Source: an uncultured Gemmiger sp. (lineage in GTDB: Bacteria; Bacillota; Clostridia; Oscillospirales; Ruminococcaceae). From it: a DNA stretch of 59,072 bases. Positions 23,955 through 44,244 of the stretch are shown piece by piece; the stretch's first letter is position 1, and every line of letters begins with the position of its first letter. The position numbers and the translations under genes are program-made. The stretch spans positions 1 through 59,072 of the forward strand of contig CALXIA010000009.1 of assembly GCA_944388245.1 (NCBI GenBank), in the 5' to 3' direction. Under the pieces are notes generated by a model. That model made no database searches. It was not told the DNA's origin and was given only the letters and a program-made list of their open reading frames with translations.

Positions 23955-23982
23955 AAAAAGCCGCCGGGCAACGCCCGGCGGC
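23955..23982 (-). terminator. terminator after the purine phosphoribosyltransferase, also the outer hairpin of repeat copy 1
   Basis: Minus strand: GCCGCCGGGC / GCCCGGCGGC hairpin with loop GTT-side bases, followed directly by TTTTT. An exact second copy of the hairpin, without the T run, lies at 24128-24150. Confidence 0.75.
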
Positions 23983-24150
23983 CAGCGTATAGAAAACGAT
24001 GTTCTCTTTCCCACCGAAAGGGGAGAGGGTGTGGGAGAGGACCATCAGGGCCCTCTCCCACTTGCGATCTTCCGGTTTTCTGCGCGCAGAAAACCGGCGC
24101 TTCAGGCGGTCTTTTCGACCGCCTGAAGCCGCCGGGCAACGCCCGGCGGC
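23960..24150 (-). repeat. structured interspersed repeat, copy 1 (191 bp)
   Basis: Read on the minus strand, 13 bases after the stop codon of the phosphoribosyltransferase gene: hairpin A (24150-24128), hairpin C (24127-24101, TTCAGGCGGTC arms), hairpin B (24097-24072, perfect palindrome around TGCGCGCA), a core (24068-24013) with a 12-pair hairpin, a 30-base tail, and hairpin A again (23982-23960) followed by TTTTT. Copy 2 at 43043-43250 has the same order and spacing and an identical 56-bp core. No protein coding is likely. Confidence 0.85.
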
Positions 24151-24163
24151 CAGGGATACGGTT

Positions 24164-24706
24164 TTACCGCGGGAACAGCGGCAGCGGCTGCAAAAACAGG
24201 ATGTCGTCCCGTTTGGCGGCGTCGCCCTCGGCCAGGATGGCGGCCCGGGCCACCACCTGGGCGCCGGCCTTTTCCACCAGGCGCTCAATGGCCTGCAAAC
24301 TCTCGCCGGTGCTGATCACGTCGTCCACCAGGGCCACCCGCTTGCCGCGGATGGCCAGGGCGTCCTTGCCGTCCAGGCAGAGGGTCTGGGTCTTTTGGGT
24401 GGTGATGGAGTTCACCTGGTCCACCAGGGGCTGCTCCATGTAGGGCTTGACGCTCTTGCGGGCCACGATGTAGTAGGGCAGGCCCAGCAGCCGGCTCAGC
24501 TCCTGCACCAGGGGGATCCCCTTGGCCTCGGCGGTGACCAGGTAGTCCACCTCGGGCAGCTTTTCGGCCAGCAGCGGGGCGGCGGCGGTCACCAGTTCGC
24601 AGTCGCCCAGGATCACAAAGCTGGCGATGGCCAGGTCCGGGGCGATGGGAATGATGGGCAGCTGGCGGGTCACACCCGCCACGGTCAGTTCATAGCACTC
24701 GTTCAT
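24164..24706 (-). CDS. purine (adenine-type) phosphoribosyltransferase, 180 aa
   Basis: Salvages a purine base with PRPP. The PRPP-binding motif VALVDDVISTGES is clear, with VTAEAKGIPL and PYYIVARKSVK typical of adenine/xanthine phosphoribosyltransferases. Start after AAGGAGG. Encoded 15 bases downstream of a purine permease, so uptake and trapping are linked. Base specificity (adenine against xanthine or guanine) cannot be decided here. The structured repeat follows directly. Confidence 0.85.
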   Translation of the reverse strand: MNECYELTVAGVTRQLPIIPIAPDLAIASFVILGDCELVTAAAPLLAEKLPEVDYLVTAEAKGIPLVQELSRLLGLPYYIVARKSVKPYMEQPLVDQVNSITTQKTQTLCLDGKDALAIRGKRVALVDDVISTGESLQAIERLVEKAGAQVVARAAILAEGDAAKRDDILFLQPLPLFPR

Positions 24707-41463: not shown

Positions 41464-41492
41464 TTGCCCTGCCGCCCGGAATATGGTACGCT
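41464..41492 (+). promoter_or_regulatory. promoter of the DUF1846 gene
   Basis: TTGCCC (41464-41469), 17-base spacer, TACGCT (41487-41492) with an extended TGG. Confidence 0.55.
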
Positions 41493-41554
41493 TATACACA
41501 GTTGTGCGCGGCTGTAGTATGGCCGCGCGGTTCAATAAAGTTGGGGGAACATTT

Positions 41555-43033
41555 ATGGAGATCGGGTTCGACAACAATCTGTACGTGCAAAAGCAGACCG
41601 AAAAGATCCAGGAGCGGATCGCGCAGTTTTCCGGCAAGCTGTATCTGGAGTTTGGCGGCAAGCTGTTTGACGACTACCACGCGGCCCGGGTGCTGCCCGG
41701 CTTCCACGCCGACGGCAAGATCCGGCTGCTGCAGGCCATGAAGGACCAGGCGGAGATCATCTTTGCCATCTCGGCCGGGGACATTGAAAAGACCAAGATC
41801 CGGGCGGACCTGGGCATCAGCTACGACATGGAGGTGCTGCGCCTGATCGATGACATCACCGAGACCGGCATCTCGGTGAACAGCGTGGTCATCACCCAGT
41901 ACACCGGCCAGCCCGCCGCCGACGCCTTTGCCAAAAAGCTCACCAGCCGCGGGGTGCGCAACTACATCCACCGGCCGATCGCCGGCTATCCGGCGGCGGT
42001 GGAGCACATCTGCAGCGACGAGGGCTACGGCTCCAATCCCTATATCGAGACCACCAAGCCGCTGGTGGTGGTCACCGCGCCCGGCCCGGGCAGCGGCAAG
42101 CTGGCCACCTGTCTGAGCCAGGTCTACCATGAGCACCGCCGGGGGGTGATGGCGGGCTACGCCAAGTTTGAGACCTTCCCGATCTGGAACCTGCCCCTGA
42201 AACACCCGGTCAACCTGGCGTACGAGGCCGCCACCGCCGACCTGAACGATGTGAACATGATCGACCCGTTCCACCTGGAGGCCTACGGCAAGACCACCGT
42301 GAACTACAACCGGGACGTGGAGGCCTTCCCCATCGTGCAGACCATCCTGGCCCGGATCACCGGCAACAAAGAATACTACCGCAGCCCCACCGACATGGGG
42401 GTGAACATGGCGGGCTACGCGATCTTTGACGACGCGGTGGTGCGCGCCGCCGCCTGTGAGGAGATCCTGCGCCGGTACTACAAGGCCGCCTGCGACTGCA
42501 AGCAGGGCAAGGGCTCGGAAGAGGCGCTGCACAAGATCGAGAGCATCCTGCAGCAGCTGAACCTGCAGCCCACCGACCGGGCGGTGGTGGCGCCGGCTCT
42601 GCGGCGCCGGGACGAGACCCACCAGCCGGCGGCGGCCATCCGCCTGCCGGACGGCCGGATCGTCACCGGCCGGGCCAGCAACCTGATGAGCGCCTGCAGC
42701 GCCACCGTGCTGAACAGCATCAAGGCCATCGCCGGCATCCAGGACATCACCCTGATCCGGCCCGAGGTGCTGGAACCCATCCTGCGGATGAAGATCGACA
42801 TTCTGGGCAGCCGGTCCAGCGTATTGAAGGTGGACGACACCCTGGCCGGCCTGGCGGTGACCGCCGCCAGCGACCCTGTGGCCGCCAAGGCCATGGCGGC
42901 GCTGCCCCTGCTGCGGGATTGCGATATGCACTCCAGCCAGATGCTCCACTCCGGCGACGAGGGCACCCTGCGCAAGCTGGGCCTGCGGCTGACCATGGAG
43001 CCGGTGTACCCCAGCAAGGACCTGTACTTCTAA
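41555..43033 (+). CDS. DUF1846-family protein, 492 aa
   Basis: It starts at ATG 41555, MEIGFDNNLYVQKQTEKIQE, after TTGGGGGA. Recognisable family stretches: GKLYLEFGGKLFDDYHAARVLPGF, the VVVTAPGPGSGKLATCLSQVYHE P-loop-like motif, FPIWNLPLKHPVNLAYEAATADLND, and MHSSQMLHSGDE. A cytoplasmic ATP-binding-like protein widespread in anaerobic Firmicutes; its reaction is unknown to me. The repeat element begins 9 bases after its stop. Confidence 0.85.
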   Translation: MEIGFDNNLYVQKQTEKIQERIAQFSGKLYLEFGGKLFDDYHAARVLPGFHADGKIRLLQAMKDQAEIIFAISAGDIEKTKIRADLGISYDMEVLRLIDDITETGISVNSVVITQYTGQPAADAFAKKLTSRGVRNYIHRPIAGYPAAVEHICSDEGYGSNPYIETTKPLVVVTAPGPGSGKLATCLSQVYHEHRRGVMAGYAKFETFPIWNLPLKHPVNLAYEAATADLNDVNMIDPFHLEAYGKTTVNYNRDVEAFPIVQTILARITGNKEYYRSPTDMGVNMAGYAIFDDAVVRAAACEEILRRYYKAACDCKQGKGSEEALHKIESILQQLNLQPTDRAVVAPALRRRDETHQPAAAIRLPDGRIVTGRASNLMSACSATVLNSIKAIAGIQDITLIRPEVLEPILRMKIDILGSRSSVLKVDDTLAGLAVTAASDPVAAKAMAALPLLRDCDMHSSQMLHSGDEGTLRKLGLRLTMEPVYPSKDLYF

Positions 43034-43042
43034 GGATAACGC

Positions 43043-43250
43043 GGCGGGACGAATTCTTCGTCCCACCTCAAACTGACGAAAAAGTCTTTTCGTCAGTTTG
43101 AAACGCCGTTTTTCCTGCGCGCAGAAAAAACGGGACAATCGCAAGTGGGAGAGGGCCCTGATGGTCCTCTCCCACACCCTCTCCCCTTTCGGTAAGAAAA
43201 GAGAGCACCTTTTTCTGCAAGCTGCGGCGGGACGAATTCTTCGTCCCGCC
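43043..43250 (+). repeat. structured interspersed repeat, copy 2 (208 bp)
   Basis: Read on the plus strand, 9 bases after the DUF1846 stop: hairpin A (43043-43067, GGCGGGACGAA arms), hairpin C (43068-43101, 15-pair stem, TCAAACTGACGAAAA arms), hairpin B (43106-43133, around CTGCGCGCAG), core (43138-43193, identical over 56 bp to copy 1), tail (43194-43225), hairpin A again (43226-43250; 24 of 25 bases the same). The order, gaps and gene-relative orientation match copy 1 while the A and C stems have entirely different sequences. Confidence 0.85.
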
Positions 43251-43314
43251 CTTTCCTTTGCCCTGGGCCGGGCGCATCCGACCCCTTTCGCTGGCGCGGC
43301 GCAGCAGTTTGTGG

Positions 43315-43320
43315 TATAAT
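43315..43320 (+). promoter_or_regulatory. extended -10 promoter of the 43369 gene
   Basis: TGTGGTATAAT, a perfect -10 with extended TGG; the -35 position (TGGCGC) is weak. The stretch 43251-43314 between the repeat and this promoter holds nothing else that I can see. Confidence 0.6.
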
Positions 43321-43368
43321 AGCACCATGTTTTATCCCCGGCCTTGCCGGGCAAAGGAGGGTCGTCCC

Positions 43369-44244
43369 ATGCGCCATACCATGCGCCATGTGAGCCTGTT
43401 TGTCTGCATCCTGCTGCTGGCGGGCGCCGCCGCCCTGATCGGTTCCCGCGGGCAGAGCCTTACCAACGAGGAACTGGCCCCGCTGCAGGTCACCTGCTTT
43501 GCGCTGGAACAGGGCCAGGCCACCCTGATCCAGTGCGGCGGCCACGCGGTGCTGCTGGACGCGGGCAGCGCCGAGGCAGCGCCCGCCCTGCTGCAAAAGC
43601 TGGCCGAGCGCCAGGTCACCCAACTGGACGCGCTGGTACTCAGCTATTTTTCGCCGCTGCGGATGGGGGGCGCGGTCCAGGTGCTGCGCAGCCTTCCCAC
43701 CCAGGTGGTCTACGCGCCGGACTACGACCCGCCCGCCGACCATCAGGAGGACTGCCGCCAGCTGCGGCAAGTCATAGAAGAGGCGGGCATCCCGGTGCAG
43801 CTGCCCGATGAGGAGGGGGATACCCTGGCGCTGGGGGACGCCCAGCTGACCCTGGAACGGCCCTTGCAGGGCCATTATGAGGCCACCGAAGGGGACTACG
43901 CCCTGGCCGCCAGCCTGGAACACGGGGTCTTTTCCTTCCTCTTCCCCAGCGACGCGGGGGAACAGCGGATCGGGGAGCTGATGGCCCAGCTTCCCTTGAG
44001 CCACACGGTGCTGGTTCTGCCGGAACAGGGCGCCGTGCGGGAGAACACCGAGGCGTTTCTGCGGGCGGTGAATCCGGAGATCGCGGTGCTCACCGGCGAT
44101 GAGCCGCCTAGCCAGGATCTGCTGGACCTGCTACAGGGCATGGAGGATCTGGCCTTGCGGGAGCTGTTTTGCACCGCCGACGGGGACCTGACCTTTACCA
44201 GCAACGGTCTGGACGAACTTACCGCCGTCCAGGCGGAAAACTGA
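43369..44244 (+). CDS. secreted metallo-beta-lactamase-fold protein without the metal motif, 291 aa
   Basis: N-terminal signal/anchor (residues 8-25), then a domain resembling the C-terminal MBL part of ComEC: VTCFALEQGQATLIQCGGHAVLLDAG, the stretch DALVLSYFSPLRMGGAVQVLRSLPTQVVYAPD, and SFLFPSDAGEQRIGEL. In active relatives the segment after ALVL reads T-H-x-H-x-D-H-x-G-G; here it is SYFSPLRMGG, so both metal histidines and the Asp are gone. Probably catalytically dead or repurposed. Start after AAAGGAGGG. Confidence 0.72.
   Translation: MRHTMRHVSLFVCILLLAGAAALIGSRGQSLTNEELAPLQVTCFALEQGQATLIQCGGHAVLLDAGSAEAAPALLQKLAERQVTQLDALVLSYFSPLRMGGAVQVLRSLPTQVVYAPDYDPPADHQEDCRQLRQVIEEAGIPVQLPDEEGDTLALGDAQLTLERPLQGHYEATEGDYALAASLEHGVFSFLFPSDAGEQRIGELMAQLPLSHTVLVLPEQGAVRENTEAFLRAVNPEIAVLTGDEPPSQDLLDLLQGMEDLALRELFCTADGDLTFTSNGLDELTAVQAEN

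What the first reader, a model, noticed from the sequence alone, without database searches (positions are those of the whole stretch)
23960..24150. Non-coding structured repeat with conserved core and covarying hairpin stems (copy 1; copy 2 at 43043-43250)
Two loci 19 kb apart share one design, read in the direction of the upstream gene: hairpin A, hairpin C, hairpin B, a 56-bp core that is identical base for base, a 30-32 base tail, then hairpin A again. The stems of A and C are unrelated between copies (GCCGCCGGGC against GGCGGGACGAA; TTCAGGCGGTC against TCAAACTGACGAAAA) yet fully paired within each copy. Stems of B differ in part around a shared TGCGCGCA apex. Keeping pairing while changing sequence means the folded form is selected, in RNA or in extruded DNA. 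Both copies start 9-13 bases after a stop codon, in the same orientation to that gene. This does not fit an IS, a simple REP or a CRISPR. It could be a mobile structured element, an RNA processing or stability module, or a substrate of a host hairpin-acting transposase (as for REP/TnpA-REP).
Basis: partly seen in the sequence, partly recalled or inferred. Interest (0 to 1): 0.82.

Follow-up and report, generated by a model that had tools for sequence, protein, structure and literature searches.

The report
Terminator-copying mini-transposon of IS1182 type
The structured repeat is a tiny transposon without genes that jumps into the hairpin ending a gene's transcript and copies that whole hairpin to its other side, so the gene probably keeps its terminator; it appears to be moved by a known kind of transposase.

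Summary
The two structured loci are real, but the parts list must be redrawn. Hairpin A is not part of the element: it is the local gene's terminator-type hairpin, present on both sides because the element duplicated it on insertion. The element is about 120-160 bp: end hairpin C, hairpin B, a nearly invariant core hairpin, and a right end. Fourteen strong matches lie in this genome; 4 of 149 genomes searched have it, all of one genus, Gemmiger. Its ends resemble the two ends of full IS1182-family insertion sequences from relatives, 8 of which are flanked by exact repeats of a whole hairpin. At both window sites G001 and G002 have no element and no doubled hairpin. So it is a MITE, most likely moved by an IS1182-family transposase, with a target duplication that follows hairpin length (22-41 bp) instead of a fixed stagger. 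Published IS1272 work reports hairpin replacement or partial deletion and draws whole-hairpin duplication only as a possible pathway. Hairpin C does covary; hairpin A's apparent covariation is a target effect. New variant of a known kind.

The parts
23986..24125 (-). MITE copy 1 (element proper, read on - from hairpin C to right end), downstream of an adenine phosphoribosyltransferase-like gene (24164-24706 -)
   Evidence: bounds are where the two hairpin copies stop, +/- 3 bases
24126..24153 (-). gene-proximal copy of the target hairpin, CTGGCCGCCGGGCGTTGCCCGGCGGCTT; no T-run after it
   Evidence: 28/28 identical to the distal copy
23958..23985 (-). gene-distal copy of the target hairpin, followed by a T-run: intrinsic-terminator-like
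   Evidence: the terminator scan found 2 sites, shuffle mean 1.2, so the scan alone is weak
24100..24128 (-). hairpin C of copy 1 (left end folded on its own inverted copy); overlaps the duplicated stretch by 3 bases
24072..24097 (-). hairpin B of copy 1
24031..24061 (-). core hairpin D of copy 1
43068..43224 (+). MITE copy 2 (element proper), downstream of a DUF1846 gene (41483-43033 +)
43041..43067 (+). gene-proximal copy of the target hairpin GCGGCGGGACGAATTCTTCGTCCCACC; no T-run after it
   Evidence: 1 mismatch in 27 to the distal copy
43224..43250 (+). gene-distal copy of the target hairpin GCGGCGGGACGAATTCTTCGTCCCGCC followed by CTTTCCTTT
   Evidence: 1 terminator-like site found, shuffle mean 0.4
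43068..43101 (+). hairpin C of copy 2 = left end; tip (T)CAAACTGACGAAAAAG
43106..43133 (+). hairpin B of copy 2 (the single-sequence fold of this copy alone prefers another pairing for it)
43145..43175 (+). core hairpin D of copy 2
43209..43224 (+). right end of copy 2, CTTTTTCTGCAAGCTG; its reverse complement CAGCTTGCAGAAAAAG resembles the 3'-type IS1182 end

Best explanation
A non-autonomous mini-transposon (MITE) of the IS1182 family. Shown by comparison: its two ends resemble the two end types of IS1182-family insertion sequences in relatives; the well-preserved copies sit in hairpins, often just past a stop codon; these copies are flanked by two copies of the local hairpin; relatives without the element do not have the doubled hairpin. 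Inferred: an IS1182-family DDE transposase acts in trans, recognises the extruded or single-stranded target hairpin, and joins the 3' ends of the element at the 5' feet of the hairpin on each strand. Gap filling then copies the hairpin, so duplication length follows hairpin length. In the window the distal copy keeps the T-rich tail, so the gene probably keeps a terminator about 170-185 bases further on. End hairpin C may be kept paired because the end also works as a folded structure, as the hairpins just inside the ends of the full IS suggest.
For: Copies: 14 of 18 matches at E<=4.5e-10 in the own genome; 4 of 149 genomes, 1 of 131 genera. Hairpin direct repeats of 22-41 bp in 12 of 28 loci tested, scores 22-37 against at most 9-13 in 30 shuffles each; 5 mismatches in 366 bases. 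Sites without the element: both window sites in G001 and G002; L047 and L050 in G002. Of 60 IS1182-type loci, 23 gave a pair of end motifs in the stretch held, and 8 of these have exact whole-hairpin repeats of 20-39 bp (L065, L079, L080, L082, L130, L135, L139, L140). A hairpin lies directly outside 22 of 37 end-motif hits against 17 of 1020 control places, and inside 20 of 37 against 56 of 1020. Hairpin C: 97.5% of cells paired, 6 of 10 pairs changed on both sides; 0 of 500 shuffles as high on four of five measures, 10 of 500 on the fifth.
Against: 16 of 28 loci show no clear hairpin repeat, and in 2 of the 12 that do (L054, L061) the repeat misses the outer part of one arm. No IS1182 transposase was found in the window's own genome, a 75%-complete assembly. 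Of the 23 IS loci with a pair of end motifs, 4 have different hairpins at the two ends (L081, L088, L138, L141), 2 a hairpin by the test at one end only (L132, L142), and 9 none, among them L076 with an 8-base repeat; most of the other 8 look like chance motif pairs. Two IS1182-family elements elsewhere are tabled with 4-base duplications (ISCaa15 in PMC3196728; ISPse1 in PMC3281130), so whole-hairpin duplication is not a trait of the whole family. The ends differ more between copies (C arms 17.9%; right part 21%, or 11% over the 7 copies with an intact right end) than the core (1.4%), the reverse of what is expected of a MITE. The shuffle test for C does not allow for relatedness of copies. 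No transposition was observed.
Confidence: 0.9

Rival explanations
1. A cis-acting RNA module (3'-end stability, processing or termination element) spread by selection, with hairpin A as its outer helix.
For: Strong predicted folds, position just after stop codons in the window, a nearly invariant core hairpin, covariation in C.
Against: Hairpin A is the local hairpin, not doubled in relatives. Copies lie in both orientations to the gene (by eye). Ends resemble an IS. The Rfam scan of the window gave only two tRNAs.
Confidence: 0.04
2. REP/BIME-type element moved by a Y1 (RAYT/TnpA-REP) transposase.
Against: Y1_Tnp family found in 1 of 4 genomes (G001) although all 4 carry the element. Y1 transposition makes no target duplication (recalled), whereas 22-41 bp are duplicated here.
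Confidence: 0.02
3. Same MITE, but the paired changes in hairpin C come from template-switch repair of an imperfect palindrome and not from selection for the fold.
For: Template switching is proposed to make compensatory changes in stems (PMC8794818, outline with abstract). In L046 the loop of C is inverted, and at the L039 site the target hairpin is the exact reverse complement of that in G002; both would fit template switching.
Against: Hairpins lie just inside 20 of 37 IS1182 end-motif hits, which suggests a function for a folded end.
Confidence: 0.4
4. The two hairpins are not a target duplication: the element inserted beside one hairpin and the second arose by later copying, for example repair from the terminator.
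For: Some copies have one full and one partial hairpin (L046, L050, L054, L061), and some full IS have different hairpins at the two ends.
Against: Eight full IS loci in different genomes have exact flanking hairpin repeats abutting the end motif.
Confidence: 0.05

Closest known systems
IS1182 family (NF033551; IS1272 and TnSha1 as studied members)
   Same: Transposase family of the possible partner; targets hairpins, some of them terminators, without a sequence consensus (PMC4923244, passages read; PMC5678879, abstract and passages).
   Different: IS1272/TnSha1 delete part of the hairpin or replace it and leave no target duplication (same papers); here the whole hairpin is duplicated. PMC5678879 draws whole-stem-loop duplication as pathway b of its model. 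Other family members are tabled with 4-base duplications.
Bacterial MITEs (RUP, MITEAba12 by name)
   Same: Short, gene-free, IS-like ends, target duplication, several copies, moved in trans (inferred).
   Different: The duplication is a whole hairpin of variable length. PMC10969869, a review of prokaryotic MITEs, has no occurrence of IS1182 or IS1272 in its main text (passages read).
REP/BIME elements and RAYT
   Same: Hairpin repeats between genes.
   Different: Different transposase class; no Y1_Tnp found in 3 of 4 carrier genomes.
Group IIC introns (recalled)
   Same: Insert at terminator hairpins (recalled).
   Different: The element is 161 bp at most as extracted and the Rfam scan of the window gave only tRNAs; they do not duplicate the hairpin (recalled).

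Membership tests
MITE | Multi-copy, short, no transposase gene | tested here: met
   107-161 bp as extracted, 14 strong matches in own genome
MITE | Terminal inverted repeats shared with an autonomous element | tested here: met
   Left CAGACTGTCGAAAAAG and right (rc) CAGCTTGYAGAAAAAG resemble the 5'- and 3'-type ends of L065 and L080, by eye; weaker in copy 1 and lost in truncated copies
MITE | Target site duplication, single target where the element is absent | tested here: met
   12 of 28 loci; window sites without element in G001 and G002. In G003 the copy 2 site has the A-like hairpin once plus another, different hairpin
MITE | Mobilised in trans by the transposase | not testable with these tools
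   needs a transposition assay
IS1182 family (the possible autonomous partner) | Transposase over the NCBIfam IS1182 cut-off | tested here: met
   4 of 4 proteins given, 389-423 bits, cut-off 270
IS1182 family, IS1272-type mode | Target hairpin deleted or replaced, no duplication | tested here: not met
   Whole hairpin duplicated in 8 of the 23 loci that gave a pair of end motifs
REP/RAYT | Y1 transposase in carrier genomes | tested here: not met
   1 of 4 genomes; own genome only 75% complete
Known structured RNA family | Rfam match at gathering score | tested here: not met
   only two tRNAs in the window
CRISPR | Regularly spaced direct repeats with unique spacers | tested here: not met
   dispersed copies on different contigs or far apart

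The most novel reading that the evidence does not exclude
One group of IS1182 transposases reads structure rather than sequence at both partners: it recognises a hairpin next to a short end motif on the element and any hairpin in the target, cuts at the 5' feet of the extruded target hairpin, and so copies the host's terminator instead of destroying it. Duplication length is set by the target fold, and end hairpins can drift in sequence while staying paired.
Probability: 0.4. Interest if true: 0.72.

Novelty: new variant of a known kind. Interest (0 to 1): 0.5.

Why it matters
Most DDE transposons make a short duplication of fixed length (recalled). Here the duplication equals the target hairpin (22-41 bp in the MITE, 20-39 bp in full IS), which points to a transposase that acts on a folded target. 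It gives the whole-stem-loop-duplication pathway that the IS1272 authors drew as a possibility a set of natural examples, with sites in relatives that lack the element. It also suggests a low-cost way of living in a dense genome: insert into terminators and leave a terminator behind. The target effect is a warning that paired changes between copies of a repeat need not mean selection for the fold.

Tried and rejected
RNA-family reading: the Rfam scan of the window gave only two tRNAs. REP/RAYT: Y1_Tnp in 1 of 4 genomes. Fixed orientation to the gene: broken by L042, L051 and L013 (by eye). Other MITE families with the same ends: an exact search for the C palindrome in 4 genomes gave 5 sites, all in known copies. 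The right-end pattern with one mismatch gave 16 hits: 5 in known copies, the L065 end, an IS1182 remnant in G003, and 9 others, 8 of which I read and judged unrelated by eye. An automatic search for IS ends by inverted repeats often chose wrong ends, and its printed output was cut; a cleaner test of all 60 loci replaced it, in which 37 of 60 gave no pair of end motifs, which I take to be because the stretch held stops at a contig end or the IS has other ends. The excess of differences in the ends over the core stays unexplained; copies were found partly by their core, which biases this, and the MAFFT alignment misplaces part of copy 1's C hairpin (the C figures come from hand-set arms). In one search, 4 of 18 matches (E 0.03-0.8) look like chance and were not used. 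One search tested 28 of the 30 loci; L060 and L063, which lie at contig ends and look like two halves of one copy, were left out (L063's arms are).

Full report
What is there. The window's two loci share a 56-base identical core, at 43138-43193 on + and on the - strand in copy 1. Read in the direction of the upstream gene, each locus is: hairpin A, hairpin C, hairpin B, core hairpin D, a right end, and hairpin A again. The upstream genes are an adenine phosphoribosyltransferase-like gene (copy 1) and a DUF1846 gene (copy 2).

Copies. The own genome (1.97 Mb, 75% complete) gives 18 matches, 14 of them at E<=4.5e-10. Of 149 genomes searched, the own one included, 4 have it, all in one genus; a capped number of places per genome was scored there. 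Named records are Gemmiger sp. An120 and an uncultured Gemmiger. With a longer query the four genomes of the genus give 33 places, 30 of them with loci.

Hairpin A is a target duplication. In 12 of 28 loci tested, the sequences outside the two ends are direct repeats of 22-41 bases that fold as hairpins, with 5 mismatches in 366 bases; with the right flank shuffled (30 times each) the best scores over all 28 loci are 9-15, against 22-37. In L054 and L061 the repeat misses the outer part of one arm. Each site has its own hairpin. The other 16 of 28 have no such repeat or only a partial one (L046, L050); many are truncated, and three pairs among them look like the same site in two genomes.

Sites without the element. 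At the copy 1 site G002 has a hairpin close to A once, and G001 another single hairpin; at the copy 2 site G001 and G002 have one clear hairpin of other sequence, and G003 has an A-like hairpin once plus a different one; none has the element in the stretch read. For sites occupied in G001, G002 has one hairpin and no element at L047 and L050, and at L039 as far as the right flank aligns. At L043, G000 and G003 match across both flanks with only 21-22 extra bases, room for one hairpin; the G000 hairpin was seen once.

The possible autonomous partner. In G001 a 1583-bp insertion sequence with an IS1182-family transposase (396.8 bits, cut-off 270) is flanked by two exact 29-base hairpins and carries the ends CAGCCTGTAGAAAAA and CAGCCTGTCGAAAAA. 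The MITE's C end resembles one and its right end the other. G002 holds pieces of the same transposase at 98-100% identity and G003 a remnant; none was found in the own genome. In those too the ends lie next to hairpins, and the remnant in G003 has different hairpins at its two ends. In 60 IS1182-type loci of this bacterial family and class, 23 gave a pair of end motifs: 8 with exact whole-hairpin repeats of 20-39 bases, 4 with different hairpins at the two ends, 2 with a hairpin at one end (L132 has a short one at its other end by eye), 9 with none. L076 among the 9 is a real IS with an 8-base repeat; most of the other 8 look like chance motif pairs. Over all end-motif hits with enough flank, 22 of 37 have a hairpin directly outside and 20 of 37 one inside, against 17 and 56 of 1020 control places; some of the 37 are chance motif hits.

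How it probably works. Shown: hairpin target, whole-hairpin duplication, IS1182-like ends, sites without the element. Inferred: the transposase acts in trans and joins the element's 3' ends at the 5' feet of the folded target hairpin, after which gap repair copies the hairpin. The authors of the IS1272 study draw this as pathway b of their model, while their own element replaces the hairpin and makes no duplication (PMC5678879, abstract and passages); TnSha1 and IS1272 delete part of it (PMC4923244, passages). Two other IS1182 elements are tabled with 4-base duplications (PMC3196728, PMC3281130, passages), so the family is mixed. In the window the distal hairpin has the T-rich tail in both copies, so a terminator probably remains.

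Covariation. For hairpin C, 12 copies give 97.5% paired cells and 6 of 10 pairs with changes on both sides; 0 of 500 shuffles reach the observed value on four of five measures and 10 of 500 on the fifth, and slid versions score far lower. The arms were set by hand, and the shuffles ignore relatedness. I cannot decide between them. Over 11 copies the core varies 1.4%, C arms 17.9%, B 14.3%, the right part 21.3%, the last falling to 11.0% over the 7 copies with an intact right end; I have no good explanation.

Literature. Ten searches of the held open-access library listed no paper that I recognised as describing whole-hairpin duplication by IS1182 elements or a MITE of this family. The library lacks most subscription journals. 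I read passages only of PMC3196728, PMC3281130, PMC10383233 and PMC10969869. That some IS1182 members target palindromes is cited in the IS1272 papers to Siguier et al., which I did not read.

Noticed in passing
L039 site in G001 against G002 (L108): The target hairpin in G001 is the exact reverse complement of the hairpin at the G002 site, as if inverted between two related species (by eye).
   Followed up: no
L046 (G000 contig C3), hairpin C loop: The loop of C is inverted (GAAAAGACTTTTTC for GAAAAAGTCTTTTC) relative to most other copies.
   Followed up: no
L081, L088, L138, L141; G003 remnant L178: IS1182 elements with a different hairpin at each end; could be recombinants, draft-assembly joins or another insertion mode.
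   Followed up: partly
L129, L131, L136, L137: Other IS1182-type elements in the class have a different end type (A-rich then GGGGCTGT); in L136 the ends are themselves foldback hairpins.
   Followed up: no
window 43258-44244 +: ORF after copy 2 has weak matches to metallo-beta-lactamase-like and ComEC models, far below the curated cut-offs; probably an ordinary hydrolase fold.
   Followed up: no
L050 site in G003 (L106): Beside the single hairpin lies TTTCTGCGTTGCACGCAGTAAA, like hairpin B: possibly a remnant of the element.
   Followed up: no
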